Shown in pieces: positions 4,202-63,950 of a DNA stretch of 64,000 nt (positions are counted from its first letter, which is position 1; each line of letters opens with the position of its first letter). Source of the stretch: Symbiodinium sp. CCMP2592 (Eukaryota > Sar > Dinophyceae > Suessiales > Symbiodiniaceae); the NCBI GenBank assembly GCA_905221615.1, contig CAJNDT010000587.1:62001-126000 (forward strand). Reading direction: 5' to 3'. Under the pieces are notes generated by a model. The model made no database searches and had not been told where the DNA came from. It saw only the letters and a list, made by a program, of their open reading frames with translations. A program made the position numbers and the translations under genes.

Positions 4202-4334
4202 AAGGTTTGTTAGTTTCAGAGTACACGGCTCCTTCAAAGGGAACCCCTATTATAGAACGCCTATAGATCCCTCACATTAAACCAAATTATGGAACCCTTA
4301 TAGAGATACCTTAAGATTTGTTAGTTCCAGAGTA
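4202..4334. repeat. Telomere-related spacer between direct repeats
   Basis: AAGGTTTGTTAGTTTCAGAG (4203) recurs with two changes at 4313. The DNA between holds the spacer words CTATAGATCCCT and GAACCCTTATAGAG. Confidence 0.75.
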
Positions 4335-4620
4335 CTACATGGATCCGTGAGATTCTTTTACCTAGAGGCTCACAGGACTCATCGCTGAATGCTTTTGGGC
4401 CGAAAGACCACCGCATAAGGCTTTAAGTGCTTTAGGGCAAAGAGCAACTACTCTCAGGGTTCAGTTTGCAGGGTTCAGGAACCGGTTTAAGGTGTTTATC
4501 AGGGTACTCTGAGGGTGCAAACATTAGCAATTAGGATTTGCATATTATACCCTCGTACCCAGAAGCCCTGCGCAACTCCCGAAACACGAAAGCCGGAGAC
4601 ATGCGAGCCCCCCAAACCCT

Positions 4621-4726
4621 ACTTGGAGGATCATGGGACTTAGTAACTGGGGTTATTACTAGGGTACTTATAACCCCACTAAAGGTACTTATAACCATAC
4701 TTACAAAGTCCCGTGATCCTTTAAGT
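4621..4726. mobile_element. MITE-G
   Basis: Arms ACTTGGAGGATCATGGGACT and AGTCCCGTGATCCTTTAAGT. Related to family A at the first ten bases but with a different core. It directly abuts a C element. Confidence 0.85.
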
Positions 4727-4824
4727 AAGGGTCCATGTACCCAATTTTTTCATACTTTGGCCCCAAAGTATCTATATAGGGACTACTTTCTGGCCAAAGT
4801 ATATACTGGGTACATGGATCCTTA
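4727..4824. mobile_element. MITE-C
   Basis: Arms AAGGGTCCATGTACCC and GGGTACATGGATCCTT, with internal sub-arms ACTTTGGCCCCAAAGT and CTTTCTGGCCAAAGTA. It starts where MITE-G ends. Confidence 0.88.
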
Positions 4825-4941
4825 ATGACAAAGACGCAGTTCTGAATACAGACCCTAGTTTGTCCTAGCATCCTAAGTCCTCAGTACTGAGCCTCGCCTG
4901 CAAAAAGAGCCGCGGCTAGATGAAGAAACCCTGAACCCGAA

Positions 4942-5314: not shown

Positions 5315-5385
5315 TATGGCTATGTAGTTCTTTGCAGTTTCAGGGTGCAGCGCTTCCAGCCACAGGGTCGACGGACGGATTTCGG

Positions 5386-6466: not shown

Positions 6467-6570
6467 AGGGTCCAAAGGACCCAATAATTAGGTACTCTGT
6501 TTTAGGATAGTAGTTATGTAGGTTAAGATTTTGGGGAGTATATGATTATTAAGTACTTGGACCTTTGAGA
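6467..6570. mobile_element. MITE-H
   Basis: Arms AAGGGTCCAAAGGACCCAAT and GTACTTGGACCTTT; core TTTTAGGATAGTAGTTATGT is shared with the 56.9 kb copy. Confidence 0.85.
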
Positions 6571-8689: not shown

Positions 8690-11600
8690 ACTACTGTACC
8701 ATGACAACTGCGACAACGTCACCACCGCCAGGACACACAATAGCAGAATGCGAGCTAGACCCGCGATTAATCAAACGATAGAATCATTCATATTCCAACA
8801 CTTTACTGCGCCCCAGTGGAATGGCGTGTCATCAGGAGTCTTTACTAATAGCAAAACCACACTACACTGCGGACTCCCTGTTCTCCGACGTAGAGACTAG
8901 AGCCTAAGCCACTGCTGCGAAACAGCACGAAATCTGAATCCTATATACCAGAAACTCAACTTCAGGAGGTGTGACCCCTAAACCTCGCGTTTTTCAGGCC
9001 CAAAACCAAAAATGCTTGTAAGGCTTCAACGAAAACCCATGAATAATCCTATGTCAATGTTGTCTATGTAATCTACACCGACTCAGCCGCGAAATCCGTA
9101 CACCGTAAGCCGCAAATTCGCGAAAATTTCAACCGAAAGTTGGACTTTCGGTAGCTCGGCCTGGGAAATGGTTGTATTCGTAGTCCAGGGACACGAAGCC
9201 ATTGGGATATCCCGTGAGGGTGCCATCGAGATCCCAGAAGATCCTTGTGCTTTGCTGGTTTAAGCTTGTTTCATTTGTTTAGGGTTTAGGTTTTAGGGTT
9301 CCTTTACAAAGCCCGATAACCCGAGGCCACAACGTCTGAGCCGAAAAAGACCTGAAGGCTTAAAGCGCAACACCGATGGCATAAAATCTGTAAACTCTGA
9401 ACCCTCAAATGCCTAAACACCGTAGTCCTCCACCTCTTAGTCTAAACCCTAAACCCTTAAGCCTCAAATCCCAAATTCGAAGGCCTCAGCCTCTTAGATC
9501 CTAGTCTCCCAGACTGTCGAGGAGTGCTCCACGTGCGTTGCGTGGAGTTCCACCACCTCCAGGGTCTGGGTCGAGGGTTATGGGACGTATATAAGGTCTA
9601 TATAAGGTCTTTATATAAGATGTGAGTAGAGTTTATATAGGATGTTTATAGGGTCTATAAGGGTTTAGAAGGGTTTAGGGTCTGGGCTTCAGGGCTTAGT
9701 GGGTTCGGGTTCAGGGTTCATTGTCAGTTTTTCTCAGGCCTCAAGTGCCTGTATAGTAACATGTAGGGTTTCTCGCTTAAGAATTCAAGAATTACGACTA
9801 GAATTTGGCGAAGTATCTAAGTATCCACCATAGCAATAGCTGGGACCCTTCGGGAAAAGAGGCTTCTAAAGGGGTCTGGTGCTTTTGCAGCCTTTGGGAA
9901 CGCTTGGGGTTCAAATTGTTGAGAGTGGATCAAGGAAGCTCGACAAGGATGAGGGCTTAGGGCTTAGATTCTAGGGTTTAGGGGTTAGGGTATAACATAG
10001 GGCTTATGGGTTTGGGCCTTATGCGTTTAGGGGTTGAGGTTGAAAGTGAAGACAAGGAAAATGCTGGACAAAATCCCTTCGCAGGGAGCCAAGACGCGTG
10101 GCTCGCTCAAAGCGCATGGTGCAGGTCGTCTCGAAGCAGCCTTTGAAGGAAAGAGCATGAACTAGGGGATGTGGATGTTAGACTTAGGAGTCGGATTGCA
10201 GCAAAATGTGCCGATATCGGAGGTCAAAATGTTTAGCAACAGTATGCTGATAGGGTTCTCTCTGGGATTCTACTCCTCTGTAGTTTTGGCTACATAGGTT
10301 TGGCGAGGAGCCCTTAAAGCCTTTACTTAAACCCTGAACTCCCCAAACCCTATACACCTATAAACTACACCCCAACCCCAAACCCTATAACCCTATACAC
10401 CTATAAAACTACACCCTAACCCTAAACCCTAAACCCTGAAGGTTCAAGCTTCGGACTTCGGAGCATTAGACAAGGCTTGTGGTTCGGGTCCCCTTTCACT
10501 ATACACACCGACATACGCACATACATACAAAGAAACATACATACATACGTACGTACATACATACCTATGTATATGTATGTGTTGTATACACATAGCATAT
10601 TCCGAAACCTCGGGAAGTCAAGCAATATTGTGACACTATGCTTTGAGAGCCAAGCGGTCTATGCGGAGCTATGAAGCTCAAGTGTCAGACCCTGACCTTG
10701 CTTGTCGCCAGTTGCAGAGTGCGACGTTGTGGGAGAAGCTATCGGGTAACGTGTTATCTTTTTGCAGTGTTGCGTCTCCAGCTGCCCGTGAAAATTCCTA
10801 TGCTTCAGTTCACCTACGCAATCATTAAACCGAAGAGGTCATAAATGTGCCAGCCGGATTCATCCCGCGCGAAGGTTTAGTTATGGTGCTGGGATGTTAG
10901 GGTATCGAATCCTGAACCCTGTAACCTAAGCCCTCAACCTAAACCGTGAGCCCCAAAACCCGACACGCAAGACCACTACTCCCTACCCTAAGCCCTAAAC
11001 CCCTAAACTCTTCTTCCTGAGGTTTGAGGACAATTAGAATCAAAGGGTAAAAGGAGGGACCCCTAATAAGGACCCCTAGGTATATACCCATAATATAGCC
11101 AGTGTATAGCCCATTATAGGCTAGGGGTCCCCATTAAGGGTCCCTCCTTTTCCCCTAAACCCTAAACCCTTATAGATCCCTTTAAAGGAACCCTAAGAGC
11201 CCTAAATTAAGGGTCCCTCCTTTTCCCCTTTGATAGAATCCAGCCTCTGAGTACAGGAGACTCGAAGTAGTTGATCGCTTTGAGACCTGAGACGAAGAAG
11301 TACCTTGCTCAGAGGGTTAAGGTTTAGGATTTAGGGTTTCAGGGCTTAGGGGTTAGGATTTAGGGTTTTTAGGGTTTAGGATTCAGGGTTTAGGATTCAG
11401 GGTTTAGGATTTAGGATTCAGGGTTTAGGATTTAGGGTGTGGGGCTTTCTTTTGTAACCCTCGGCCTCCAGGGACCTTTTCTTTGGGTCCATACGGGGTC
11501 CAAGGCCCTAACTACAAGGTCCTTGGAGTCATAGGGTAAATCTCTTTTGACTTGAAGCCTTTAACCCCGGAGAGTCCACTACGTTTCGCGCAAGATGCGT

Positions 11601-14600
11601 GCCTTAAACAACTGGAACAGATGTTAGGGAGCATCGTAACCATGACTATAAGAAGGAGCGCGTGGCACAATGACATGATGCTACTAAGTAACCATCAAGG
11701 CCCCTAAAGTACGGTTGATGATAGAAATCCTGCATCACCCATAATAGGGAACATAATATCGGAATATACCACAATTCCCATAGTCTAGGGTCCTTAATTA
11801 AGGTAATGCAGGATTTATATCATCAACAGTATTGGTATCTCGGATCCGGAAGAGCCCCTGGTAGCCGCACGAAAGAATAATCATGTCGCTACTCGACAAT
11901 ACCTGAACCAACGCAGGTAGTTTAAGCTTAAGCTATCTGACTGGCTATAATGACTACTCTCTAGTCACAGAACTAGTTCAGGAGAGCTTTGCGGGGATTC
12001 TTAGATGTACCCGGACATTCCGGAGTACCCGGGCATTCCGGAGTGGTAGGATAACTCTAGTGATATCCTATATATTCTGACACTATCAACCACTTGTTAT
12101 AACTACCCATGAACCTCCAAGTAGTGCTCCGGGGCTTTGAACGGGGCCAGGGGATCCGTGAGCTTAGAGCTTTTGGCCAATGTAGTGCCTTGAATAAAAA
12201 AGAACCAGAAGAATCGCCGCTTTGTACCAAAAAAACCGAAGACCGTGGTAATGATAGTAATGACGTTAGTAACTACGAAGTCCTGGTGCGTAGTTTACTA
12301 CTGTAGTTCTTGTGGCCAGAAGGAGCCCTGAGTAAGTCTCAAGGGCCCTATACTACCAGGAGGACTGTATAGCTTACGAGTATGAGGATAGAACAAGGGC
12401 CTCGGGAAACAGATTTTGCTTCGGGGTATGTGGACTATGGCTACCTGTAGTACTAACTTATTTCGCCGCTAAAGCTGTTAGTGCTGTTAACTTGCATTTC
12501 CGTACTTCGAACCCCTCATTAGGCACCACACGAGGATCAATAATCCCATCCTTGCAATGCCTTTGAACTAGGCCCTATTCTACCTAAGATGTGCTGCAGC
12601 TCCAATTCAAGCCCACGAAATCCGCCAAAAACGTACATGCTAGGCTTTTGCCATGGATTCCTTCTTGAGCTGCACCAATTGATAAAAAAATCATGACCGG
12701 AACGGAGACCAAGGCCACACAAGGCCTTGAAGCCCAATCCATACCACCCTACACGACTACCCCTTAAAGTCCGAAGCCAAACCTAAAACGCATGAACTAG
12801 TGTCAGGCTGAGCCCAGGGACCAAAAACTCAAAGCCAACACTCTCACCGGCGCAGCAACAAAGAAACAACTTAAGCACCACCCACCCCCCTCCTTCAACA
12901 AAAAACTAGTCCAGGTGCTCGTTGTCTTTCGGACCCCTGATGCCCAAACCGCTCCTGACGACTGCAGCCATTGCGTTCGAAACCACCAACCCTGCATGGA
13001 GGTTCGTGGGAAGCTATAAGTACCCTAAGGCCCCAAATTAGTTCCTTTCTGGGGTTCATATTTAGAACCCTATAAGGTAAGCCCAAAAACGAACTACTTT
13101 GGGGCCATGGGTAGGGTTTGTAAGTTTCTATATTCGGGCCTATCAGGGGTTTGGACTTGGAGGTTCATGGGTAGCTATAAGTAGGGTTGTAAGTAGGATA
13201 ACTAGATATGGATAGCCTATATTTGGGGACTTATATACCCCACGGTTGATGATATAAATCCTGCATTACCCAGAACAAGGAATGTACCATAATTCACATA
13301 GTCTAGAGTCCTTAAGGTCATGCAGGATTAAGATCATCAACAGTATTTTAACTACCAATGAGCCTTCAAGTAACACCCCAAAACCCCTGTACTGTGAGGC
13401 TCGGGCGACTTCCTAAGCAAGGATATGGGAGTTGCCGAAAATAGGGGACCCTAGTATAGTAAGTGGGATCCTTATGATAAGGACCCAAAACTTCCTGAAA
13501 ATAGGGGACCCTAGTATAGTACACCAAAATAGTAGGATCCTTACGATAAGGACCCCAAACTAAGGTAGCCCGAATGTTCGGAAACTCCCATCTAGGTGCC
13601 TTAAAGATGGCAAGTGGGAGCATCGTTGCCATGCTTGTAACCCCACTTGCCACGTCCCCTGATCCTGTTTAAGTCCACCCCGAACAAAAGCCCAACCCGT
13701 AAACAAATACCAAGCCATGGACACTGTAAACCCAAACCCTAGAATTATCCTAGATCCGAAACCTCCACCATGGACCCGAAAACCGACAACCTGCACAGCA
13801 TCCCGTTGAGAATGAGCCTATCCAGGAGACCCCAGCTGAATGGTAAAAGTTCCTGGAGAGCCTCCCTAAAACCCCTCTTGACCCCAAACCCCTGAACCCT
13901 AAACCCCATAAGCCCCAAACCCTGAACCCTGGCTTGCTCCTGGCAGTCGTAGCCTCCGGCGCGATATTGCCGACAAGAACGAGATTGTGGTAGAAGGGAG
14001 GCGTATGCAGCCCATTACCTGCTGAATTCAGTGCGCTTCTATGGACCTTCAGCTTCTTTGGAAGTTCGATTCATAGGTTTTAGGGTTTCTGAGGTTCTTT
14101 GACCGGCTGGCGTTCGAGCTTCAGAAAATGTGTGGCCAATCGCCGTGGGCTGCGGCTCAAAGCGCAGAAACCCTAAACCCTGAAGCCTTGAGTGGACTCC
14201 TCACTTAGAACGGCACGCGCCTAAAGAATTCAGAGTGGTTCTGGCTTTGCGACTCTAGCAGGAAGTACGCAGCTGACATTCGTTCGGCTGTAGATGGTAT
14301 CATGCTAATTTTCTCGTGCTGTGCGTGGCCGAGTATGGCAGGAGTTGTCGGCTGGATATTGGCTGAGAGATCATCCGACTTGTCGGGTATCAAAGGGAAC
14401 TAAAGGTTAACCCTTTTGGTCATATAGGGATTATATAAGGACTATATACTACCCAAAAAAGGTTAAAGGTTACCTACTCTACTACTAGGTTAGTTGTAAA
14501 GGGCATTAGAATCCCCTAAACCCTAAGCCTATAGATCCCTTATAGATCCCTTGAAGGTTACCTACTCTACTACTATAGGCCATAGCTCCCCGATAAGTGC

Positions 14601-18800: not shown

Positions 18801-21800
18801 CCATAGCGGTAGCAGCAGCAGGGGCAGCATGCAATTGTAGTGGCAGTAGTCGTAGCCGCAGCAGCAGCAGCAGAAGTAGGAGCAGGACTAGTAGTCACTA
18901 GATGATGGTGTTGTTGTCCCACAACCCAATAACCAAGGTAATTATCATGCTATATCACGCCCAGATACCTGCTTACCACTAGATAACCTGAACATCTCAG
19001 CAGGGTTTGCGCGTCAGCTGTTAGGATTAACTCTGAGACCCTAGACCCTCGCGGCTAAGGCCTATCGGCGCCTCGGGCGCTGTGTTCTTGCGCAGCCCAG
19101 CGGAAATCCGGATGCTGAGTTAATATGGGGGCCTCAATATTTAGAATAGGGGTTTTGGGGCCCATTATACATATCATACTATAAATATTAAAAAAAAAAC
19201 CACCAAAGTAGTTTAGGTAACTATTTAAGCCCCTATAATAGGCGAGAGGGCTGAAGATTTGGAGCTCTAGGGTGTTAGGCCTTGTGGCTGCTTGTAGTTT
19301 CTGAACGCTGTGTGAAAGGCTTGGGAATCATGCTAGGGCCCTATCAACCTTGAACTCCAAAACACACCAACACCGTAATAAGAACCTATGCAATCTAGTT
19401 TAGCTGGCATGAAAACGGTATGACTGAAGCCCTTACCACAAACCTTCTCACAAGCAATAAAACCTTGTCCCTAAGGCTCGCAATGGCCCGAAAGTCTTAC
19501 ACAGTATGGTCCGTAAAACCATAAATACATGAGCCCATGGAGCCGTAGGGTTAATCAACATTCCTATCAAACCAAAAGCCGCAAGCCCTCAAACTCTGAA
19601 CCCTGTATCAGAAGCCAATAGCCCGAAAGACTTACACAGCATGGTCCTTAAAACCATAAATACATGAGCCCATGGAGCCGTAGGCTTAATCAACATTCCT
19701 ATCAAACCAAAAGCCGCAAGCCCTCAAACTCTGAACCCTGTATCAGAAGCCCATATGACAAACTCTCAAAGACCCTACTTGAAGGACCAAGCGACTTAGT
19801 AAGCAAGTTTATACGTATACTCTAAACGAGGTTATAGTTAAATACACATAACAACTCTAGATACACCAAGTCCCCTGATCCTTCAAGTATAGGAGGAATC
19901 CAAGGAGCAAAGGATGCTGCAGCGGCCGCACCGCCAAGTTGTGATCTCGGCGGAACTATTGTAAGGTTTTCACAGGGGCCAAAGTACCTATATAGCCGTA
20001 TGTAGGGTTTCAGTATTAGAAATAGCTATTTCAAACCCTAGACCCTAAAACGGTCCTAAGTATGACTTGGGGAAGTATGCCCTGTAGGACTACTTGGGGT
20101 TTCTATAATTACTCGCATCTACTAGAACCTAATTATCATTTGGGGCAGTACTTGGAGGTTCATGGGTAGTTATAAATGGAGTTATAAGTCCCCCAATGCA
20201 GGTTATAACCACAGTTATCCCGATTGTAACCCCAATTGTAACTACCCATGAACCTCCAAGTATCCCCCACAACTCTCTTCTTGAACAACCGGGCCCCAAA
20301 AAGTTCAAACTTTCTAAGCTAGAGCTAATATATAAGGCCAAAAAGTTTAATGTTCCCCCGTCCACTCTCTCAGAATACTTGGGGCCCTTTCAAAACAGCA
20401 GCTTTATGGGCTCAGTGCGCCGGGCTACTTACCCAAAGTCTGACAAATCCTACCCTTTAGGGTTTCTCTATTCTGGCTTCTATATACCACTCCTGAGAAT
20501 AGAAAGGTAGGCTTTTTGGGGGCATAGGCATGGTTTAGGGCTTAAGTTTAGGGCGTTTAGATGGTGTAAGAGTTCCTCTAAACCCTGAACCCTCAACCGA
20601 GGGTTCATAGGTACTTAAGAAGTCGGCTACTTTAGAAGCCTTAACAGAATAGACATGAGGCTTTTTACGGAATAAATCTAACCAAACGGTGAGGAGCCCT
20701 ACGGAAACTGATAGTTCAGACACCTATATGCTGGTCTGGGTGCTTGTAATTATACTCTGATATACAGGGGGACATTTAGGAATAAAGAAACCGACTGCCC
20801 GGAAGGGCCCCCTTCATAGTCCTCAACCCTGTAAGGCTCAAAACAAGCCAAAAGCTTGATGCAGTATGGTCTTAGGCCCAAAAGTCTAACATTCCTGAGT
20901 TCTAGGAGCCTTAAGGTAAAACACCCCTAAAGCCTGAACCCTAAACCACCCCCCATAGAGTATATACTTAGGCCTTAAAGTACCTATATAGGGGCTGCCT
21001 TAAGGCCAAAGTATCTACCCTAAAGGTACATGGAGTGCTTGGGACCAAGCCGCCGTAGAGTGCGAAGACCTCGACCCCTAAACCCGAAACCCCTAAACCC
21101 CTAAACCCTAAACCCTAAACCCCTAAACCCTAGGCCCCTGAACCCTAAACCCTTAAGCCCCTGAACCCTAAACTCCCCTTAACCTTCGCCAAGGCGCTGT
21201 AGAGTGCGAAGACTTCGTCTCCAGCCTCAGTGAAGTAGGAGTGGCCCTTCGTCTTGTAGGCGACATTGTGCCTCGGCTGGGGTTCTTTTGGTGTAGTTGT
21301 TTGTATACTTTTTGGGTTTAGGGTTTATGGTTTAGGGCTCTAAGGACTCATATATTAAGCTCTTGGGCCCAAAGACCATACCATACAAGGCTTTTGTGCT
21401 ATCCGGATCCCGAGGTTTCTCTTCCAGGACCCTCCTTGTACTTAGGGTAGATGGAGGGTCTAGGTTGATTGATAGGGCTTGAAAACGGTGTTAGCGAAGG
21501 TCTCTGCAGTGCTTCGGAATAAAGGTGGAGGAGTGAGGAATTGCGGCAATGTGGGGAAGGGCTTCTCAGGGGCCTTTGGGTACAAAGCCATATGAGGTGC
21601 TATATCGGAGAGGGTGACGAGATGAACGTCCAAGTAAAGGCTTGATCCAAATGCCTCTTTGAATGAACTGCTGAAGAATCATCCGGGCGAAGGCACCGCG
21701 TGGGCATGCCGCTCGGATGGTGCAATGTTTAATACGACTCACGGGACTGTAGCTTAGTCAAAAGATGCACCGAATGCTTAGAACAAGCTTTTGGGCGTCG

Positions 21801-24800: not shown

Positions 24801-27800
24801 TTCAGGCCCCTATAATGATCACATAACGTCTGCTCCTGTCCCGGTGACGACACACGCATGGGCAGTTGTCAAAACTATGGCCCCTTTTTGGGCACCCTAA
24901 ATATTAGGTGCCGTATTATATTAGGGACCCAAAAAAGGACCCTAATTTTGACGACCACCCACATACACACACACACACGCGCACACACACACACACACAA
25001 CCCGAGACTTCAACACCCTCTAGTCAAATCAAACCAAGGATCCCTCCACGACTTAGGGTATATTCCTGAATTAATTGTGGGTTTGGGAGTCCCTAAGCCG
25101 TCAACCCCAATTCACATAAACGCTGCAGGTCTAAGATCTATATGTCTATACCTTGGTTATGAGGGGCTTTGCAGTCTCTGGGAGGGTATATTCTTTCAAC
25201 GCACAGGGTTTGAGCTCTGCCTCAAGATACCCAAACTACCTTTTTTGTAGGTTCTCACTATGAACACTAATGCAGAATTCTATAGGGATCCCACTACAAA
25301 GTATAGGTTTTGGTAATTCCTCGTAGTCCTCAATCTTTGCAGTTTCGGGGAAATCTCTGGAAGAGGGCCCAGAGAGCCCAATATTTCCTTAATTAAGGAA
25401 TATAGCTTAAATCATAAAATTAAGCCCAATATAATTTAAGCCATATTCCTTAATTCCCTTATAGAGACCCTATAGATCCCTTCAAGGAGCCCTCTACGGA
25501 ACCCTTATTCCTGAATTAAGGGGTATTGGGCTCTCTGGAGGGGGCTCGCGCGCGCCTTCACGTTGCGGGTCAGACGCCCGACAGCAGCCCGTAGGTCGGT
25601 GGGAGTGGGGATCTCCTACGGTAAAAGCCAGAAAGTTGGAATATGATTATCCTAAACCATTTATGGTAAATTATAGGGTATCCTACCCTGAAACCATATT
25701 CCAACTTTCTGGATCTCCTATCGCGAAAAGGCAGACTTCCCTCTACTTACCAAGTCCCTCGACCCTCCAAGTAGCGAAGTACTGACTTCCCTTAATTCCG
25801 TTGATGATATAATTAAACCCTGCATTACCTTAAGGACCCTAGACTAGAGGAATTATGGTGTATATATATATTCCTTATAATGGGTAGTGCAGGATTTATA
25901 TCATCAACCGTAGGAGCCCTCACAGAAACCCATAAAGGATCTCATGAAGGAGCCCATAAAAGGATCTGTAAGGCTTCCTTTAAGGGGATCTACTCGGGCC
26001 TCTTCTTAGGGGATCTGTAAGGGCTCCTTTTAAGGGGATGTATTCGGTGCTTTTTAAGGGATACTGCAAAAAGGGTTCCTTGCAGGGTTCGTTCATGGGT
26101 ACACGGTAACTCTCTTCTTCAATATCCCGGCCCAAAAACGTTTTAAACTCTGCTTCAAGCTCTCCCATTGGCTATTGAAGGGAAAGGCTCCTTCTTGAGA
26201 TTTTCGGATCTGGTGGTTTTAGACTTCAAGGGTGACAACTGACCCGCCAAGGGGCTTAGACTGTTAACCAAGTATGCTCGATGGCAGAAGGTCTCGGATT
26301 CAGGGTTTCTGAACTTCTGGCTTAGCAGTCCGGAGAGTCGCGGCCCTAAACCCTAAACCCTAAACCCTAAACCCTATATCTCTCTGTCTGTGTGTGTGTG
26401 TACTGAGCTTCAGGCTGGGAGTTCGAGAATGCTTGGATTCCCCCCCTCAAAAGGGACATGTGCAGACGAATGCCTGGATTAAGCAAGGATCCCCCTGGGG
26501 TCTGATAAAGGTCTTAGGGAGACTGACAGCCTGCCCTGCAGGTTCAAGTGCTGAATTAATGAGTTGCTGGTACGTATTGGTAGTATAGTTTAGTATAGTA
26601 TAGTATAGCATAGTATAGCATAGTATAGTATCGCATAGCATAGTACAGCGCAAAAAACATTCAGAGCACGGTGATTGTGATTTGCAGCCCTGCTTAAAGC
26701 ATGAGCGGGTAGGAATGTGGGTTAAGTGATTGGGTATTCTGCTAACCCACAGCTCGAACTGAGGTACTTCCAGCTTGCTCCTGAACTACATAAGTAGTTC
26801 GCTACATGAAGGTCGCCCGAAAAAATACCACACCGCCGTAATAAGGACCCCCAAAAGAATCAGGGCTCGAAGCAATCAGCACATTGCACATGTCAGTCGA
26901 CACATTTGGGTAGTTATAATTGGGGATATAAGCGGGTTATAAGTATGGTTATCCTACTTATAACCCTACATATAACTACCTGTGAACCTCCAAGTGGGCA
27001 CTAGCCACGACAGCTCGACTCTGCATCCCCTCCACCTAGAGAAATCAGAGTAAACCGTCCACCCGAAACCCGGCACGACCGTAAATCCTTCATCAACCAC
27101 CGTAGACAGAACCCTGGAAGAAAAAAAATCATGACACCCTCAGCAAATCTTGTCACACCTTGCAAGCGTCCAACAGAAACCAACAGCAAGCCACAAACTC
27201 CTACCAAAACCATCCAGAAACCCCGTCAATATCTTATGACTCTTATGAAATCCCTCGGAAGTCTGAACCTCACAACCCTGCACCTTGAACCCTGGGACCC
27301 GAACCCGCTAAACCCTAAACAAAACAGGACAATAATACATTAAAAGCAAGATGACAAAATAATGATCAACATCAAGGTGAACAAGAGGATGATAACACCG
27401 GAAAATAGAAATCCTCATAAATACAGTCTAACACTGACTGGCAAAATAGAAATCACCAGAAATACGGTCTTCACACCAAAAAAACAGAAATCCCCACAAA
27501 TACGGTCTTCGCCCGATCTCCTCATGGTGGTACCAGATGCCCAGGTGTTCGAAGGTCAGGGGCCGGTCTAACTCCACCGTGAAGCCGCCCTCCTCTGCTT
27601 TCTTTCGAATAATCTAGTATGGTGTAGTACATGAGTATATTGTAGATATGTGAAAATCGTATGCTACAGTAAATGTTAGAATGCATTATAGTATATGCTA
27701 ATAGTATGTTAGAGTATATTAATCATGAGTTAGAGTATTGTATCGTATATCTTTGAGTCTCTTATCGGCATTGCTGTTGCCATTATGGAGGAAAACATGT

Positions 27801-46122: not shown

Positions 46123-49100
46123 AATATGTGTGTGTGTGTATATATATATATGTTGAACGCTGAATCTTTCCCAGCCCCACACTGTAGCATATTTTGTCAC
46201 TAGCCTATCTTGCATTTGAGAAACAGTAGGGTTTAGGGATTAGGGTTTAAAGTCGGAGCCGCAAAATAAGGCACTGCAGTCACCAGCGCAAGATCCAGGT
46301 CAACTGGCTATATTATATCTGGAGAGACCTCAGACCCTTCTGTAGGGGTTTGGAATCAGAAGTGGACTGTTGCCTATAGTCCCTATGTACTCATAGTCTA
46401 GATCCCCCCGGAACCCTTTTCTGGTTGAGGTCCTGAACCTATACCCTTGTAGTAGCCATTCTAGCACCCTTTAGACAGGAACTCCATTCCAAGTATCACT
46501 AAGGCCGCTATGCCGAAACCCTGAGAAATCGCCACCAGAACTTGCATAGACCCATGTCTAGGCACCCTATTCTAGTCATTAAAGGGGACCCCATCATAGA
46601 ACCCTTTAAGGGCTCCTGAAAGCCTTCCTTTGAGGGTACTATACGCACCCATAGGCTCCATCCATAGCAATTCATTTTGGGGGCTCATATCTAGAATCCT
46701 ATAAGGTAATCCCAAAAAGCAACTACTATGGAGCCACTGGCTTCAAGATTACAGAGCAGGGCCTCGGAAACGCACTCCGCGCATGAGCTCACCGGTGGAG
46801 GAGCAGGCGTCGGGGAGGATGCGCACCCGGAAGGCTTGCCCTGCATTCAAAAGATTCCTAAGGGTTTAGGGGTTGTTTATAAGGTATTTTGGAGTTTATG
46901 GTTTCAGGGTTTCAGGATTTCCGACCCAGGGTTTGTCAGCTAGGGCTTCGGGTTCACACTTTTGGGTTTATTGTTTTCAGCCTAGGCCTAAGCTCTTTCC
47001 ACCTGCAGATTCCTGTGCTACAGTCACAAAGCCCAGAGGCCTTTAGGGGTTTATGGTGTAGGGTTATGGCGGTTATGGCAGAAAACACCGCATTTCTCGA
47101 GCCCAGGAAGCCTCCCATAAACAGACACTCTCCCCCAAGCCATAATCCCTAAACCCGTAGAGAATGAAGTGCTCCTCAGCACAGGATGTCGTCCTATTAG
47201 CGACTGGTATATGATCCATTTAGCTTCAAACGATTCTGAAGTCAGTGTGCCTTTCGACTCTTCCTACAGCTTCATACCAAGCCCCAGCCGCCCAGACCTT
47301 GCACCCCAAACACCTTGACCTAAACGCGAAAATCCTAAACGTTGCCCAAACACTCCCAAAACAGGCAATCAGCAACGAAAGCCATTTCTGCTCTTGCAAA
47401 GCCGGGTCCGGCCTACTGCCGTGCCATTGGGTCCCGATCCCGACACGGTGTAGGAGGTCCAGCCTCTCTTGTGGTGATTTTGGGTGCAACAGGCAGGGGT
47501 TAGGGTTCAGGGCTTAGTAAAGGCGTAAGATTTCGGGCCTGGGGTTTAGGGTTTAGAGGATCAAAGAACTGGTGATTCTTGTGATGGTTGTGGTATGCTG
47601 ATGTTACCATCAGGATGAACATCCTGAAGAAGCAAAGAGCCCGACCCAGTGCGAACAGTGGGCACTGCAGGTGATCGACCACTGCTTCCTTGTGCTCCAA
47701 CCAAACACAACTCAAGAGGCCATGGTTTACGTCTGGGTGTTGAGGTGTGATATCGGCGGCAGGGTCCTTGTGGCAGTAATGCCCGTAGTGTGAAGAGTCA
47801 AATTGGTATATTATAGTATATTATGGTATAATATATAAGTATATTCTAGTCTACATTATTCTATAGTGTATATAATGGTACATGCCATAGTAAATTATGG
47901 TAAGTTTTCGTAAGTTAACATAGTCATACTGCTGATGGACAAATCCTGCCTTACGCATTATAAGGAATATACCATAGTTCCCATAGTTTTAAGTTTAGGG
48001 CCATGCAGGATTTTGTCCATCAGCAGTAGTGGTAATGGTTGTTGCACTGGGCCGCTTTGGGCCGAGGTTGGGTCGTACTTCAGAGAAAGAGTAGCTTCCC
48101 CTAAGGGTCCATGTACCCAAATAGGGATCCTTTAAGGGCTCCTTTAAGGGATACTGGGTTCTATAAGGGCTCTGTAGGGTTTAGGGTTTAAGGGTCCATG
48201 TACCCAAATAGTCTATATTTGGCCTTAAAGTAATCCCTTTCTAGGTACTTTGGGGCCAAAGTATGTAATATTTGGGTAAGGGTTCGTTTATGACTGATGT
48301 ACAGCTCCGTGAATCCTAAACTCGAATCCTTAACCCCATTCCTCGGAGCCTGCAATAACGAACTCGCCCTAGATCCAACTTGAAGCAGTAGACCACTGAT
48401 AACTGAGTTAGAACCCCGTCTGTGTGGGGCTTCGCGGCGTAGGTTCGAGCTACGTTGCTCCCCAACATCAGTACGTCTGGTTTAGGGCTTAGTTAGGCTT
48501 TAGTGTTCAGGGTTATAGGGCTGTGGGCTTAAACCATAAGGGATTGGGGATACACCTGATAAAACCCTTGTATACTCAAACAGACTCCTTATTACACCCG
48601 GTAAGCAAGCGTGTAACCCCCCCCCCTGACATCCCTTCAGCGCAGACATAGCCCGATTGTACATGTACTTTCCTATGGTACATTACGCATACCACAGTAT
48701 ATTATAGTCATACTAGGCTGATCAGCAACCCACTGGGAGAAAGTATATACTTGATTGGGCTTCTTATTTTATAGTAGGAACCAGAAACCTGTAAGTAAAG
48801 AAGTGTACCACTGAACAGCCTGGTATAGCATGTATCGTATACCAAATGAAACTATAGTATCAAAGGGGAAAAGGAGGGACCCGTTAATAAGGACCCCTAG
48901 GTCATATACCCTTAATATAGCCATTATATACCCATTATATAGCCCATTATAGGGTAGGGGTCCCCATGAAGGGTCCCTCCTAATCCCCTTTGATAGTAGG
49001 TTGCAGTGAACAACTCCAGCCCACCTTGGGCGATCGTCGCTCCTGTGTCCATGGTCTCTGTCACGCTGGCGATCTCCTGTGCCGTTTAGGGGTTTTGGGG

Positions 49101-54311: not shown

Positions 54312-55536
54312 CATATACACCCACACATTTGTTTATACTAAATACTATGGAAATAGAGCCCAAACAAAGATAAATATGGTCTCTTCTGCCTAATTCCATA
54401 AACATAGTCAGCGTGGACCCTCTGGTTGAGGATGGCTTGACCACTTGAGGTAAACACTACAGTCACTACAGCCCCAAGCTCGAAAATCGGGCGCCTCAGC
54501 CCAACTTAAAACCACACACTGAAGTTGAGGGTTTGGCGCCGGGAAAATCTTATAGACACCTACGAAAGCCAACACACATCATGCCACACTGCTGCAAATG
54601 CAATCATCTCAAGCCTGCCAAGATCCTGTATAAACCCCCAGTAGTTAAAGTCAGGGGTAGGATGATTGTCAAGGCTTCGTATGATGTCAATAGGGCTTGG
54701 AGAGTTTACGGCTTAGCGTCTAGAGTCCAGTCTAGGGCTCAGGTTCAGCCTGTAAATGGTGCGTACTATGAAGAAGCCCGCCCCTTAAAGGAGAGACCCT
54801 TGTGTTGTGAGAATCCTGCCGACGCGGCAAGCAAAGTAGGAATAGGCAAAGCTCAAGTTATAGCATCCCGGAATCCCGGCAATCTCCGTCAACACAATGT
54901 TCTTGAGGATGCGAATAGGGTTTAGGAATGGTTGGAAACGGTTTTACCGGTTTCTCACAGGGTTTTTATGCCGTGTGTGGTAGAATGTTTGGTGAATAGA
55001 ACACGTCTTCTTTGGGGGGGTGTGTTGCGCGACACGCAGATTATGATCTGACAGTGACAACAACAATAACAGTAAAGGGACACTCTAAACTAAACCTTCC
55101 CAAGCCGCCGAAGGGAAGGCGCTGGGGAAGCTTTCAATCAGTGCATGGTTGACCATCGCCGGTGCACGGCACGTGACGTGAGAGCCGCCTTGGCGTCGCT
55201 CTTACAAATTGTAGAGATTGGCATGTGAGGTTTGGTTTAAGTTAACGTCGGGGACCTGTGGCCCCGAGCACCCTAATCTAATGATTAGGCCGAAATCATC
55301 AACTACAGGTTCTCGTAGCCCACCCCCAGAATCAGAAGTCGCCGCACATAACCTGAGGCTCAAGCCTACATAAACTTCAAATGCTAACCCCGAGCCACAT
55401 AACCTCAAAAAAGGACCACTTAACATCAACACCCAAACCCGAAAGACTCCAACTCTGAAACTCGTGAAGCCCTGCCCCGTTACCCTAACTCCTACTACTC
55501 CTACTACTCCTGCTACTACTACTACTACTACGACGA

Positions 55537-55606
<70 letters not shown>

Positions 55607-58600
55607 CCTAAGCCACACCCCTACCGCCCTCAATTCCAAAACACGAGCAGATCTCTGCTTCGACAGGTCGCTGCTCTCCACGACTGGACAATCCTGCAGA
55701 AGACTGATGCCACGATCTGGGGGTTTCCGAAAATAGAGGACACTAATATAGTACCCTGAATAGCAGAATCCGTATTCTAAGGACCCCAAATAAGACGCCC
55801 CTAATTTTCGGATACTCCCATTGGGGGTAGAGGTAGACTTGGGGGGTCCCAGCTCGACACCATCGACCACATAATCTGCCTAGGGGTTTACTTACCTTTG
55901 GTTAGTAGGGAATGGAAGAATGGTAGTAATAGTAATAGTAGTTATAATTGTACCCCCTGATCCAAAGCCCTACAACCCCCAAGCCCAACGCTAAGCCCTG
56001 CATTGCTGGACCCTAAGCCCTAAACCCTAATCCTAAGTGTCCAAAAAGCCTAATATTCAGGCACTTGGGTTTCGGATAGCTGTTTTGTAGCCCAGCGTTT
56101 GGGAGAACATCTGACTATTAGGTACCTGAGCTCTCAGGGTAGACAGCCTCACGAAGCTTGATCTTGTCGGTACGTCTTCCTCTTGGCCGACACCGGTTGC
56201 GACGTGGGAAGTGCCACCCAAATCCAAATCCCTCAACTCTAAGCCCGCAGCCCGAAATCCTAAAATCCCTAAGGCCTGCCCAGACCCTGCAATGTAGTAC
56301 CTTCGTTGGAAAACTATTCTGTGGTTAGGACCCCATGGTAGCCAAATGCGATAATTAGCCAGAAAAAGGAACCCGACACAAAGAAAAACAAGCCCTGAAA
56401 CCCTAAACCCACATCCAGGAATTCAGCATCATGGGGCGGTCGACTAGAGCATAGCTATATGCGGACTGCAAGGTCTATGCTTCACAGACCCTGTCCCAAA
56501 CCCAAAGTACATGTTTCCTCTTCAGTCCTAGTTGGAGACTCATGGGTAGTTATTAGTTACAAGTGGGGTTGCAAGTCCCCGAACATGGGCTATAACGTTA
56601 TAACTATAGCTACCCTACTTGTAACCCTACTTATTACTACCCATGAATCTCCAACGGTTGATGATACAAACCCTGCACTGCCCCATAGTAGGGAATATAC
56701 CATAATTCCCATAGCTTAGGGTCCTTAAGGTAATGCAGGAGTTATCTCATCAACAGAAGCACGCGGTTTACAATCTCCCCTTATAGAGCCCTTATAGAGC
56801 CCTTATAGAATCCCTAGAGATCCCTTTAAAGGAACCCTTTATAACTACCCATGAACCTTTAAGGGTTTACAGGTTCGAACTTCGGCCCGGGAGCTGCGGG
56901 CTAGGGCTTGCTAACTTCGCGGCAAGGCCCTGTCCCCAAGGGTCCAAAGGACCCAATAATCGGGAACTCGGTTTTAGGATAGTAGTTATGTAGGCTAGGA
57001 TTTGGGAGAGTATATGGTTACTGGGTACTTGGACCCTTGGGGTGTCGGAAGAGGAAAATTGAGTTGTAGACCCTGCACCAAGCCGACTATCCAAACCCTA
57101 AGCCCCCAACATTTAAAAAACAAACCCTCGACCCTAAACTCAACAACCCTAAAAACCCAAACCCTCAACCCTGAACTCTTAAACGCTAAAGACCCCACAA
57201 CCCTGAACCCCAAACCCTAAACGAAAGAGTGCCCGCCTCCCCGCAGACGGAGACTCGGCTATGCGAAGGATCCGAGCTGAAGCCCGAACCACGGAGCGTG
57301 AGATTCACGCCTCCGAAGCTACGGCTGATGATGCAGATCTTGCATTACCCATAATAAGCAAGATGCCATAATTCCCATAGTCTAGGGTCATTTAAGGTAA
57401 GTAATGCAGGATTTAAATCATCAACAGTATTCAGGAAGGGACAATACTGAGGAACCATATTATTTACTATAGATCCCTATTCTGGTAACTTAAACTATAT
57501 ACTTAACAAGAACCCAGTGTCTTCTAAAAAGTCTAGTGGCGTTCGGATTTACCGCCTCCGTTTTTCACCTGCCCTTTAGGGGGTTGAGATGTTGTTCGGC
57601 ATGGGTAGCTGTCAAAATTACTGCACCTTTTTGGGGTACCCTAAATATTAGGTGCCGTACTATATTAGGGACCCAAAAAGGGACCATAATTTTGACAACC
57701 ACCCGCATAGCTTCAATGCCCGCCTTAAAGTTTCAGGTGCTCCTCCCTTTTTCTTCGGAGGCAGGGAGGCGTCGGGGGTTTTAGAATTTAGGGGCTTAGG
57801 GTTTCGGGCTTTAGAGTTTTAGGGTTTTAGGGCTTTGGGGTTTTAGGGCTTCAGGGTTTAGGCCTAAAGTTTGGAACTTCGGAGCGTGGGTTCTGCGTGC
57901 TACAAGCTGACATTTGGGGTGGTTGTCAAAATTGAGGTCCCTTTTTGGGCACCTTAAATACTAGGTGAAGTACTATAATCGGGACCCAAATAGGGACCCT
58001 AATTTTGACAACCACCCATGTGAGGCTTGGGGAGTACGGTACATTCTGACAGGACTTGGTGATCAGACTTGCAATGGTAGCTTCCGTTGCTCTCACGCCT
58101 TCGGAACTAACAACAAACATGTTCGGATTCGGATACCTCGACCGTCCAGTGCAGCAAATTTTGCAATAACCTACTGTTTGGCTTGGACCCTCAAACGAGA
58201 AACTAAGGTAGCCAACAACTCAGTACCAGATCGCAACCGTAATACCCTAATACCCCCTAAACCCTAAACCCTAAACCCTAAACCCTAAACCCTAAACCCC
58301 AAACCCTAAACCCTAAACCCTAAACCCTAAACCCTAAACCCTAATACCCCAAACCCTAAACCTGTAACCCTGTGGCAGCCTCTTCGGCTTTCCAGCTTGC
58401 GAAGGGTTGATGATATAAATCCTGCATTACCCATAGTAAGGAAATGCAGGATTTATATCATCAACCGGGAGCATCCCCTCCTTCTCCGACCTCATGAAAC
58501 CCTTAGGGTCCATGTACTCATATAGTATATGCATTGGCCTTAATGTAGTCCGTATTTGGGTACTTTGGGGCCCATGTATCTCCATACGGGTACATGGACC

Positions 58601-60669
58601 CTCATGAAAGCTGTCGCTGAACGGCTTGACCTTCTCGGATCCCCTTCCAATCTGCAAGCTCTTTCGCTGGAACTGCAAACAGTTGCCGGTGTTCTTGAGA
58701 AGCCGGACCTGGTAAAAAGGCCCTTTTTATGCCTGCCTTCAGGAGAGTCCATCCCCTCTAAGCTGCGTACGGAAGAATGAGTTTTCGAGTTCGTGGCACA
58801 TCGTGGGTGAGCTTGATACGATGGCATCAAGATTTGGATCTTCGAATCCAATCAGGACGATGCGGTCTTTGGCAGCACCGCTTTCGTTGCAGGTTAGCAC
58901 CCACTGCACTCGAATGGCTCTCTGTGGATTAATGTGGCTTTGTACAGGTTTGGTAGCCTTCGCTTGGATCCATTGATCCACTTCCAACATCTTGGCGTTA
59001 AGGCGCTGCACCAAGAGAATTCATAACCTTACAACACAAGCCTCTCGTGCAGAAAGAGATTTACACGGGGAGACCTAGAATGCTTCTACAGTACTTCAGA
59101 ATATGATCATGAACTTCTAGACCAGGACTCGTGGCAGAACCCCGTGAAAACCTTGAAGCACCCCTGCACAATTCCCTGACCCTAAGTCTCCAAAGGCTCT
59201 AATAATCAGGTAATTGGGATCAGGATAGTAGCTTTGTAGTTTAGTATGTTAGGTACTTGGACCCTTAGGGCTAAACTCTGGATTCGAGGTGTCCAGTAAA
59301 CAACAGAGTTCCTGAGATTGACAGCATCGAGCCTCCGCCATAGCCGCTGTGGAGGATGCCAGTTGAAGCAGCTTCCTGCTAGAAGGGTTTACTGTTCCGG
59401 GTTTAGGGTCTAGTGATGGCTTGTTTCAGTGTCTTTTCAGAGTGCTATAGGGTTGCAAGCTCCATGGAGGAATATTATAGTACAGCAATACAGCGACTTC
59501 GAGAAGATAGAACTGCGAAGCCTTCCGACCCCGAGAGTACTTGCTAAGATGGTGAGCGGAGAAGTAGACTTGGCCAGGTCGAAAGAGCCTGGATGCCAGG
59601 GCCTCTGCACTGAATCCAGCTCCGCGAAGACCAAAGAAACAGGAGGCTCGGGCTTTTGGGGTGTAGGAAGGGATTTAAGGGTTTGCGACGGTTTGGGGCT
59701 TTAGGGTTCAGAGTATTGGGATTTTCGAGATTCAGAAACTTCGGTCTGTGCGTTGAATCAGGGGCCTGCAATACCGCATTAGCACGGAAGTCGTGAGCGG
59801 CCCACATTGACTTGAATACGGCTAATGCTGTGGCATTGTTCTCGCACATATTTTACACGGAATCCCACGGAATAGCATAGGTGCGTATTCAAGCCTCCAC
59901 ATTACCATGCCATAGCTGCTGGTTTGAGGCTCAGGGTAAAGATTCTCACCATACGGCACAGTCTTGTCTTACTTGAAGTTATCTGACGGGTCTTGGAATC
60001 TCTGGAAAAGTTTGACGAATCCGGCTCTTCGAACTTTTGGATGGGGAAGTTCGAACCGAAGGTAGGATGCTCGTTGAAGACGGATGCGGTGTTTACGAGT
60101 CTTATCCATGTTGGGAGGGCTTCAGCTAGACCCTCAAGCCCCAAACCCACATCGCCCGTCCAGGGCTTTGTAAGAGCTGCAAGGACATGACCCCTTGTTC
60201 CGACTGAACGCTGAAACAAAAGAAGCAAACACTGAGTCTCTTTAAGAAGTTTCGTCGAAACGGAAACATTCGGGAACCCGAAGGCATACTAGTAATACTT
60301 ATAGATAGTAACTACTTCTTCAAACTCGTGCAACGCCCTCAGTACGGAATGCACACGCTACGAAGGATCCTTCTGCAAACTTAGGAACAAGTGGGAGTTT
60401 CCGAGAATAGGGGACCCGAATATTGTACCTTAAATAGTAGATCCGTATTATAAGGATCCCCAAATTAGGTATCCCTAATTTTCGGAAACCCCCAAGTACT
60501 TCCTGAAATAAACGGCTCTGGAGCATGTGGGAACGAGGCGCATGCGCCGCCTCGGCAGTTGCGTTCGCAACCCAAAGCCATACGTTCTGGGATCCGTCCA
60601 CGGAGTAGCTACCTGAGCAGTTCACTACACAGAAGATCTGAGGGTTTAAGCTGACACATAAGCAAAGAA

Positions 60670-60700
<31 letters not shown>

Positions 60701-63700
60701 GTATACTATCATATATGTATATGTATGTAAGTATGTATATATATATATATATACACGCCTAGAGCTCTACTATATGTATACACACATACACATACACATA
60801 CATATACATATACATATATACAGAGATATATATATATATATATGGTCACGTGCTCCGCAGCCCCCCCCCCTCCCCCCCAAAGGTCAATGGTCCGGATATA
60901 GGGTCGGGCCCCCCCTCCCCTGTGTGGGGTGTGGGGTTCCTCTTCCCTCTGTGGGTGGTTGTGGGGTTTTGGGGTTTAGGGTTTAGCTTAAGCTTGTGAG
61001 TTTTGGGTTTACGGTTACAAGGTAAAAGGCTTCGGGTCGACAAGGGCTTAGGGAGGATTTGCGGTGTATGAGCTGCTTTAGGCTTAGAGCCTGCAGTTAG
61101 GTGGGGTTTAGGGTTGGGTGTAGCGTTTTAAGTACAAGTTAAGGTTGCTCAAAACTGGGGCATGCGCTGCGTTATAGGGTTTACGGCTTGCTTGCGAAGG
61201 GCTTGCGCGTGAGCCCTGGCCGCCAGCACCACCCCACCATCCGGTGGCAGCTCCAACGGCCCCCAACCCCTTTCCGCACATGCCAGCCCCCACCCCCCTC
61301 CCCACCCCTGTCAGACCATACCATTGGGGGGGGGGGGGGGGGGGGGGCTGGGAACGGGAACGCCAGACGCCTGACCATATATAATCAGATATAAGAGGTT
61401 GATTTTTCAGGCTCGGGCCTAGGGTTATATCATCATCTAACTACAGTACAACACCAACTCTAATCAGGAATAGTATATCAGTTGCTGCTCAGGCCAAACC
61501 TGCACGGCAAACTTTGTGCTATACACTGCCGGCATCGACAGTGCATGCCCCAGGCTCCAGGCTTGCATTTCTGGGGTATAATATTATACCATGTAGTTAA
61601 AATCAGGAGCCCTAAAATAGCGTTGATACTTAAGCCACTACATTAGGCCGAACCCTAAGCCCGAAACCCTACTACCCTCTGGACTGCATGGGGGTTCCTT
61701 TCTGGGTTGCGCCACAGAGATTCATCCTAAGGAACTTAACCTAAGCTAGGGTTTGGGCGCGGTGTGAGCTCTACTTGCAAGCACTTGGGATCAATGAATC
61801 ACCGATATAATCTTAGGGGTTTGGGGGGGGGTGAGCTCTCCAGACACTCGGGTTCAATGAATCACCGATTCAATCTTAGGTCTCAGGATTTAGGATTTAG
61901 AGGTTAGATTTTGAGATTTAGGGGCCTACGGGCTGTAAAGCTTTAGAGGGTAGGACATAAGGTAGGCGGACCGAGCAGGGGCATCGGAACAACTTGCAGA
62001 TGATATGAGAAGCATGTTTGACCGTTTACGTGATGCGACAGCAGCTCGAATTAATGGAAGCTCGACCCCTTCCACACCCTGCAAGAACTGGGAAACAACA
62101 ACTAGCTTAGGGCTTATGCTTCAAGTATTTTGGGCTTAGGGTTTACAGAACTCCTTTTGAATCCTTGTAACGACACAAACACACAGATGTCCTTCCTTGT
62201 ACACTACCCTCGAAGCTGATATACAGTCTTCATTCCTAACTACTCCAAGACCTCCGTCAAATTACCTGACGGCTAAACCGCAAACCTGACCACTAGACCT
62301 GAACCATAAAGACCGTAAACCCCAATCCTCACTCGTAAACCTCACACCCAAACACCCCGAAGCCTGAACCCCAAACCTGAAGGCTTGAAATCCCGCTCCG
62401 AGCAAGTTGCAGCTTCCTGCCCCACTGGCAAAGAGCGGCGTCCAGCCCGCGCCGCGCGCGTGGACGCCCTCACCTGGGTCGGGTTTAGGGTTTAAGGTTT
62501 TTAGGGTTTAGGGTTTAGGGGTTTAGGCTTAGGTTTTAGGGGTTTAGGTTTAAGGTTTAGGGTTTAGGGCTTAGGGTTCGGGGTTTAGGGTGAAGGTTGG
62601 GTTCGGGGTTCAGGCTTGTGGATTGTATAGGGGGTTGTTGGTTCAGGGCTGAGAGTTTTTAAATATACTTTCCGGGTCCATAAAGGCCTAGGGTGTGGGG
62701 CTGATGGCACCTCATATACTGCCCTAGAATTGGTTTTTGGATCCCGGGTACTTGGAGGTTCATGGGTAGTTATAAGGGGGGTTATAAGTCCCCGATTACG
62801 GGTTATAACTATAGCTATCCTACTTATAACCCTACTTCTACCCATGAACCCTAAACCCTATACACTTATCGAATCCCTATATAGATCCCTTTAAAGGAGC
62901 CCTTATAACTTCCCATGAACCTCCACGTAGTCTCACAAGTTACCAGGAACAAGGCAGGCTCAGAGGAGTGCAGCCAAAAGATCCGGTACGAGCTACCCAG
63001 AGACTCCAAGGGGCCCCTTAATTAAGGAATATACCTTAAACCTAGGGTTCCTTAAAGGGTTCCTTAAAGGGATCTATAAAGGGATCTATAAGGAATATAC
63101 CTTAAATTATAGTGGAATATACCTTAGGGTTCCTTTAAGGGATCTTTTTAAGGGATCTATAGGGTTTAGGGTTTAGGGGATTCTAATACCCCTTAATTAA
63201 GGAATATACCTTAAATTATAGTAGGATCCCTAACATGATTTAAGGAATATTCCTTAATTAAGGGGTATTGGAGTCTCTGGGTAAGTTGCATCTTCAGGCC
63301 AGCGCGTACTACAGGCAGGGGCCTTAATGGTTAGAATAGGGGTCTTATAAAGGGTTCTATAAGGGTTACTACAATCTATACAATGGATCTAAAAAGGGTA
63401 CTATGATATAGGGGCCTTAACAATTAGAACAGGGTTTTGGGGTATATTATCCTATAACCATAATACGGAACCCGCCGCAACAAAGAATATTTCGGCCCCT
63501 ATTTTAAAGAGTTGGTGTTTAGGATTTCGGGCCTTGGGGTTGAGGGTCAGGGTCTCGAAGACCAAGCTTTGCAAGACCCTTCCCAGACCTTCCAAAATCC
63601 CTTAATTAAGGAATATACCTTAAACTATAATAGGGTCCCTAATATGATTTAGGGTATATCGCTTAATTAAAGGATTTTGGAAGGTCTCGGTTCCGCAGGG

Positions 63701-63950: not shown

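What the first reader, a model, noticed from the sequence alone, without database searches (positions are those of the whole stretch)
4202..63850. Telomere-like spacers flanked by duplicated MITE ends: a recurrent insertion system
At about twelve loci the end of a MITE (or intron sequence) is present two or more times, and the copies are separated by the same kind of spacer: CCCTAAA repeat plus CCCTTATAGA and CCCTTTAAAGG units. Loci: 4202-4334 (intron), S 11.1 kb, P 14.5, E 25.45, J 29.8-30.0, C 30.6, B 31.65, C 48.1, A 56.8, A 62.85, E 63.05, J 63.35, N 63.75. Undisturbed copies of the same families lack it. In every case the G-rich strand of the spacer runs toward the element centre. This is a directional, family-independent insertion with 20-35 bp duplications. 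I infer break repair with telomerase or template switching at MITE hairpins; I know of no description of this spacer.
Basis: partly seen in the sequence, partly recalled or inferred. Interest (0 to 1): 0.92.

Follow-up and report, generated by a model that had tools for sequence, protein, structure and literature searches.

The report
Shared cassette inside one-sided double-ended MITEs
In this dinoflagellate genome, several unrelated families of tiny transposons carry the same 45-70 bp partly telomere-like cassette, nearly always facing the same way, between two copies of one of their own ends, and in the families tested these double-ended forms have copied themselves around the genome as units.

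Summary
The pattern is real, but it is not a fresh insertion at each site. The window lies in a 1.1 Gb dinoflagellate genome. At 12 of the 13 listed loci a sequence occurs twice around a spacer (weak at 25.45 kb; absent at 56.8 kb); exact CCCTAAA is in only 5 of the 13. The spacer 22-mer has 28,755 places genome-wide. Of 69 fetched loci, 39 have flanking direct repeats (controls 17 of 188); without five repeats made of spacer words, 34 remain, with the opposite MITE end on the telomere-like side in 24 versus 2. For family B the expected orientation beats the reverse 767:7 and 328:2. In S, N, E and B the end-spacer-end unit recurs at scattered loci; S composites have 5-bp target duplications outside the OUTER end (5 of 9; swapped flanks 0 of 72). 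So composite MITEs transposed as units. Spacers of eleven composite types from nine end families are collinear. P elements carry the E spacer together with E end sequence, so a cassette moved between families. Best reading: a cassette copied into MITE ends a few times per family, probably by microhomology template switching, then amplified by transposition. Per-locus telomerase repair is not supported. Locus 4202 shows the same layout in apparently single-copy, non-MITE DNA.

The parts
4200..4335 (+). Apparently single-copy locus: 25-bp direct repeat (4200-4224, 4311-4335; 23/25) around a diverged 12-mer spacer 4225-4310; no telomere heptamers
   Evidence: only itself found genome-wide; no inverted partner above control
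11040..11233 (+). S composite MITE: left end, core, inner right-end copy 11133-11155, spacer 11156-11205, complete outer right-end copy from 11206; 5-bp target duplication TAGAA on both sides
14463..14575 (+). P composite end: inner copy 14463-14487, E-like tail plus spacer 14488-14550, second copy 14551-14575
25448..25515 (+). E composite type 1: spacer 25456-25504 without exact telomere heptamers; short (about 12 nt) repeat of the E end; L017 looks like the same type
29786..30060 (+). J composite with repeated J-end copies and spacers 29918-29943 and 29982-30032
30608..30706 (+). C composite: inner end about 30608-30622, spacer, outer end 30683-30706
31603..31729 (+). B composite: inner end 31603-31630, spacer, outer end from 31702
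48102..48212 (-). C composite: outer copy 48102-48125, spacer, inner copy 48189-48212
56778..56833 (+). Spacer-like 12-mers beside a single A end; NO duplication found here
   Evidence: best repeat 8 nt
62749..62929 (+). A composite: left end 62749-62775, inner right end, spacer with CCCTAAACCC, outer right end 62903-62929
63010..63265 (-). E composite type 2 with two spacers (63045-63094, 63127-63178), both toward the same end
63325..63434 (-). J composite end: outer copy, spacer 63340-63366, inner copy 63407-63434
63701..63827 (-). N composite: outer copy 63701-63735, spacer 63737-63786, inner copy 63795-63827
48860..48992 (+). Simple S copy without spacer, 5-bp target duplication TAGTA (comparison copy)
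20149..20262 (+). Simple A copy without spacer (comparison copy)
60392..60494 (+). Simple B copy without spacer (comparison copy)

Best explanation
The spacer is a shared, directional cassette of about 45-70 bp (reading outward: CCCTAAA-like heptamers in many types, then 12-mers of the CCCTTATAGATCCCTTTAAAGGAACCC kind) that sits inside one end of composite MITEs. A composite has a complete outer end, the cassette, and an inner copy of the same end that often lacks the last few nucleotides. SHOWN: composites transpose as whole units using the outer end (S; B by its 2-bp duplication); simple and composite forms coexist in a family; cassettes of different families are homologous and face the same way; P elements carry the E cassette with E end sequence attached. 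INFERRED: each family got the cassette once or a few times when repair or replication synthesis at a MITE end switched, by short homology (AAGG, AAGGAACCC), onto a cassette in another MITE and then back into the MITE end, which duplicates 20-35 nt. SPECULATIVE: composites spread because the second end copy acts as an extra inner transposase-binding site, as in IR/DR transposon ends.
For: Recurrence as a unit: S, 39 of the 40 best-scoring hits cover at least 105 of 121 bases of end-spacer-end at 88-100%; its inner junction has 300 places against 6,502 simple ends. N, 40 scored of 648 candidates, 80-100%. B, 767 inner junctions, 34 of about 100 listed letter-identical. Unit transposition: S 5-bp duplications outside the outer end 5 of 9 versus swapped 0 of 72; B 2-bp 12 of 18 rows versus 49 of 306 swapped. 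Homology: 12 spacers, 63 of 66 pairs above the 99th percentile of shuffles; mean 49 versus 17 shuffled, 20 reverse-complemented, 22 against telomere-like arrays; collinear in 11 types. Transfer: the P query matches E composites at 88-96% over query 43-103 or most of it, E-end sequence included (seven fetched E loci, two of them identical with flanks); L042 also keeps E sequence on the outer side. Direction. In B locus L014 a beta inner end pairs with an alpha outer end; in some N copies the outer side matches N's other arm better (L063, L065, L068).
Against: No empty or intermediate site was seen and no other strain was available, so template switching is read from junctions only. Only one clear inter-family transfer (P with E sequence) was found, and its direction is inferred. 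DNA searches score only the best candidates, so full-length hits are favoured; the S junction count is defined by its pattern. The spacers are single copies chosen partly because they hold the anchor word, which inflates similarity. Locus 4202 has the layout outside MITEs. In 30 of 69 loci no repeat reached 26, and five of the 39 repeats are mostly spacer words; some of the rest are arrays, solo ends or decayed copies. In several composites the source arm of the outer copy is ambiguous. The binding-site role has no direct evidence, and two things speak against it: the authors of PMC3310237 suggest that an extra TIR on one side only may hamper transposition (passage), and Sleeping Beauty needs all four sites, on both ends (passage). 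Composites are only about 4% of the two S forms counted.
Confidence: 0.68

Rival explanations
1. One reading: telomerase or break repair adds the spacer afresh at MITE hairpins, locus by locus.
For: Telomere-like heptamers lie beside the inner MITE end in many composites and the G-rich strand runs inward, as extension of the flank-side 3' end would give. Locus 4202 is outside MITEs.
Against: The same junctions recur within families; the larger part of the spacer is non-telomeric 12-mers in a shared order; exact CCCTAAA is missing from 8 of the 13 listed spacers.
Confidence: 0.1
2. The cassette is itself a mobile element, for example a small RNA copied by target-primed reverse transcription, that inserts with 20-35 bp target duplications; those in MITE ends are common because transposition then multiplied them.
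For: Target-duplication-like repeats in many families and at 4202; constant orientation; 28,755 places of the 22-mer.
Against: 50 of 69 places score at least 24 against one of my MITE-end probes; E end sequence moved with the cassette into P; by my reading no fixed termini or tail; no Rfam match in the window.
Confidence: 0.17
3. The cassette is an ancestral subterminal part of these transposons, inherited from a common ancestor whose ends later diverged.
For: MITE cores share similar words (AAGGAACCC, GGATCC) with the cassette.
Against: S and B have different target-duplication lengths (5 versus 2 bp) and unlike ends, yet the cassettes are alike; simple ends greatly outnumber the counted composite junction in S; E has two different composite types.
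Confidence: 0.05

Closest known systems
Mutator-like elements with multiple (tandem) TIRs in plants (PMC3310237; abstract and passages seen)
   Same: Extra end copies in tandem; some forms amplified; cause of the duplication unsettled
   Different: Long TIRs within one superfamily; the abstract and passages seen mention no shared spacer between families and no fixed cassette direction; the authors found forms doubled on both ends more successful
IR/DR ends of Sleeping Beauty (Tc1-like; PMC7827188, passages seen)
   Same: Inner and outer direct repeats in an end; the outer is longer than the inner; element inserts at TA (many B duplications are TA)
   Different: IR/DR at both ends and about 220 bp; here only one end in the copies read, and MITEs with another target-duplication length have it too
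Foldback/MITE and Helentron elements that carry tandem repeats and seed satellites (Tetris PMC4079207, oyster PMC7492417; search listing only)
   Same: Small transposons carrying tandem-repeat cassettes that can expand into arrays
   Different: As far as the listings tell, one element family per repeat; here one cassette across many families, between duplicated ends
Dinoflagellate introner elements (PMC7789003, passages seen)
   Same: Short inverted-repeat elements in dinoflagellates with direct repeats
   Different: Their direct repeats are 3-5 nt at exon-intron borders; no telomere-like cassette is described in the passages seen
Interstitial telomeric repeats inserted at breaks in vertebrates (recalled, not read)
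   Same: Short telomeric tracts with small duplications at the site
   Different: Pure telomere units, not amplified by transposition

Membership tests
MITE (non-autonomous TIR transposon) | Inverted ends and target-site duplication | tested here: met
   S: 5-bp duplication in 5 of 9 composites and one simple copy; B: 2 bp in 12 of 18 rows. Not shown for C, K, A and N, where the script found too few complete copies
MITE (non-autonomous TIR transposon) | High copy number, short | tested here: met
   S simple end 6,502 places; S composites 194-221 bp
Tandem-TIR transposon (MULE type) | Two copies of an end in direct order at one side | tested here: met
Tandem-TIR transposon (MULE type) | Mutator-type long TIR and about 9-bp target duplication (recalled) | tested here: not met
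   duplications 5 bp (S) and 2 bp (B); other families not settled
IR/DR (Tc1-like) end | Inner and outer repeats, inner lacking terminal nucleotides | tested here: met
   S inner copies and many B inner copies lack the last few nt; some B, C and A inner copies reach the terminus
IR/DR (Tc1-like) end | Arrangement at both ends | tested here: not met
   No spacer at both ends among the composites read; no systematic search was made
IR/DR (Tc1-like) end | Both repeats bind transposase | not testable with these tools
   needs a binding assay
Telomerase-made interstitial telomere | Pure telomere units added independently at each site | tested here: not met
   recurring junctions and mostly non-telomeric spacer

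The most novel reading that the evidence does not exclude
A non-coding, partly telomere-like cassette is a parasite of transposons: it passes between unrelated MITE families by end-to-end template switching, always in one direction, and by giving each host an extra inner transposase site it makes the composite form amplify, later seeding minisatellites and telomere-like arrays across a dinoflagellate genome.
Probability: 0.2. Interest if true: 0.82.

Novelty: new variant of a known kind. Interest (0 to 1): 0.56.

Why it matters
MITEs with different transposase requirements are normally thought to evolve separately. One directional cassette shared by families with different ends and, for B and S, different target-duplication lengths would show a channel of sequence exchange between them, and a way in which composite ends, minisatellites and part of the telomere-like repeat load of dinoflagellate genomes could arise. 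It can be tested on existing dinoflagellate assemblies.

Tried and rejected
Per-locus insertion was the starting hypothesis and was dropped. A first repeat test was weak: 9 of 18 cores with at least 12 unmasked matches against 16 of 176 controls, and at 18 or more 2 of 18 against 6 of 176, because its anchor rule missed several listed loci and its controls hit tandem repeats; searches replaced it. In one search only 8 of the 45 own inner/outer pairs scoring 24 or more are best in both row and column, which went against independent recent duplications. The idea that the outer copy comes from the opposite MITE arm was tested and is undecided: most S and B copies match the near arm as well or better, three N and all three E copies the far arm. 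Rfam gave nothing in the window. I could not use other strains (the genome has no relatives in the tool) or the telomerase RNA. Searches for prior description; several listings were capped (for example 12 of 725, 15 of 460). The four spacer strings gave three papers, each holding one string once and all on bacterial vaccine or antibody work.

Full report
WHERE IT IS. The window is G000:C587:62001-126000 of a 1.098 Gb, 5,383-contig genome. The dinoflagellate spliced-leader 21-mer (recalled) has 318+318 places at up to one mismatch and none in the reversed control, so the host is a dinoflagellate; the size suggests Symbiodiniaceae (recalled, not tested). Dinoflagellate telomeres are TTTAGGG (passages of PMC11453091 and PMC11508785).

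THE OBSERVATION. Spacer words far exceed chance. Twelve of 13 listed loci show a sequence on both sides of the spacer; 25.45 kb is weak and 56.8 kb fails. With spacer words masked, five of the listed loci stay under the threshold and two were not in the test. Exact CCCTAAA is present in the spacer at 5 of 13 loci. Spacer-free copies of the same families lie in the same window.

GENOME-WIDE. The 22-mer CCCTTATAGATCCCTTNAAGGA has 14,587+14,168 places at up to two mismatches, none in the control. I took 69 of the 100 listed places: 29 of the first 30 (L002 overlaps L001) plus 40 of the other 70, picked down the list. Of these, 39 have a flanking direct repeat of score 26 or more, against 17 of 188 random positions in the same loci. 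The listed places are exact matches in contig order, so worn spacers are under-sampled. In 25 of the 39 the inverted partner end lies on the telomere-like side, in 3 on the other, in 11 it is undecided. Five of the 39 repeats are mostly spacer words; without them it is 34 repeats and 24 against 2, 8 undecided; the two are a tandem array (L003) and a repeat half made of spacer words (L076). A stricter test with spacer words masked gave 21 of 77 clusters against 6 of 260 controls, and 11 against 0 for the side, 10 undecided. Fifty of the 69 score at least 24 against one of my MITE-end probes.

DIRECTION IN FAMILY B. Telomere side next to the inner end: 391+376 exact hits. 12-mer word next to the end: 53, of which by my reading 7 clearly have the G-rich strand pointing outward and most others are short right-way spacers. 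12-mer side next to the outer copy: 169+159; reverse arrangement: 2. The words of the paired patterns differ, so the ratios are rough.

INHERITED, NOT INSERTED PER SITE. The S query (inner end, spacer, outer end) finds 40 scored hits of 1,140 candidates; 39 cover at least 105 of 121 bases at 88-100%, the window's own copy included. Only the best candidates are scored, so partial copies are under-reported. The S inner junction occurs at 300 places with up to two mismatches, while the simple end occurs at 6,502; other S junctions were not counted. Target duplications of S are exactly 5 bp directly outside the left end and the OUTER right end in 5 of 9 composites, with 0 of 72 when flanks are swapped; a tenth fetched locus (L056) had no left end and was not counted. 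The simple S copy in the window has a 5-bp duplication as well. N gives 40 scored hits of 648, 80-100%; in some N copies the outer end is cut short (L064, L065, L068). E composites share one spacer at distant loci: seven fetched, of which L046 and L047 are identical with flanks, so six distinct. In B 34 of the about 100 listed inner junctions are letter-identical and 19 more are near variants, by eye; the pattern could not show three heptamers. So, in the families tested, composites are subfamilies that transposed as units; I infer that most sites in the window are such inherited copies.

FEW FOUNDING EVENTS, MANY FAMILIES. The families differ: S has a 5-bp and B a 2-bp duplication (12 of 18 rows, two of them sharing one left end, against 49 of 306 swapped; E 3 of 5 against 4 of 20). 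Yet their spacers are homologous and collinear: 63 of 66 pairs of 12 spacers (one copy each) exceed the 99th percentile of shuffles, mean 49 against 17 for shuffles, 20 for reverse complements and 22 against telomere-like arrays of the window. The spacers were found with anchor words, which inflates this somewhat; 4202 is the least similar. B has composites on both of its unlike ends (alpha and beta, with slightly different spacers) and E has two types, so there is more than one event in some families.

TRANSFER BETWEEN FAMILIES. The P query matches other loci over query 43-103 or most of it (88-96%); the seven such loci that I fetched are E composites. The matched part includes E end sequence (GGGNATTAGAATCCCC) before the heptamers; three P loci have it (the window, L042, L043) and L042 also keeps E sequence (CCTAGGTATTCCTTAA) on the outer side. 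I read this as the E cassette with E flanks copied into a P end; the direction is inferred. Borders carry short homologies (AAGG in B, P and E; AAGGAACCC in N). This fits template switching but does not prove it.

AN EXCEPTION THAT MATTERS. Locus 4202 has a 25-bp repeat (23/25) around a diverged spacer, is found only once in the genome (common words are skipped by that search), and has no inverted partner above control. Either it is the last copy of a lost family or founding insertions can also happen in ordinary DNA. This keeps the independent-mobile-cassette rival alive.

HOW IT MIGHT WORK. In S and many B copies the inner copy lacks the terminal nucleotides while the outer copy is complete. 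Sleeping Beauty ends have an outer repeat 2 bp longer than the inner, both bound by transposase (PMC7827188 passages), but there all four sites on both ends are needed. Plant MULEs with tandem TIRs amplify in some families; their authors could not settle how the duplication arose, and suggest that an extra TIR on one side only may hamper transposition (PMC3310237, abstract and passages). An extra binding site is therefore a possible but untested, and contested, reason why composites spread.

NOVELTY. Tandem ends and repeat-carrying MITEs are known. A single directional cassette shared across MITE families that differ in ends and, for B and S, in target-duplication length was not found in the held library (capped listings), which lacks most subscription journals and preprints. 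I class it as a new variant of a known kind.

Noticed in passing
window 1-64000: Telomere-like heptamers saturate the window outside MITEs too: 259 CCCTAAA against 21 expected, in many degenerate arrays.
   Followed up: partly
L003 1501-1908; L019; L021 1061-1316; G000:C779:1422108-1423196: Tandem arrays apparently built from composite ends or from the 12-mers, for example about six units of end plus spacer in L003 and a period of mostly 204 bp in C779: small transposons may be seeding minisatellites.
   Followed up: partly
window 33560-33827: A P element end (33744) stops about 10 bp before a CCCTAAA array (33755-33827), a possible case of a MITE end beside a growing telomere-like array.
   Followed up: no
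window 63170-63218; L044-L050: The E type-2 junction GGGGTATTAGAATCCCC is a near-palindrome, as if a fold-back step made the first spacer bases.
   Followed up: no
L046 and L047: Two contigs hold the same E composite with identical flanks over 300 bases: duplicated sequence or a second haplotype in the assembly, so genome-wide counts may include some doubles.
   Followed up: partly
window 19481-19755 and 39348-39871: Two near-perfect tandem duplications with 135-bp and 239-bp periods.
   Followed up: no
window 55488-55606: A long (ACT)n run of about 40 units.
   Followed up: no
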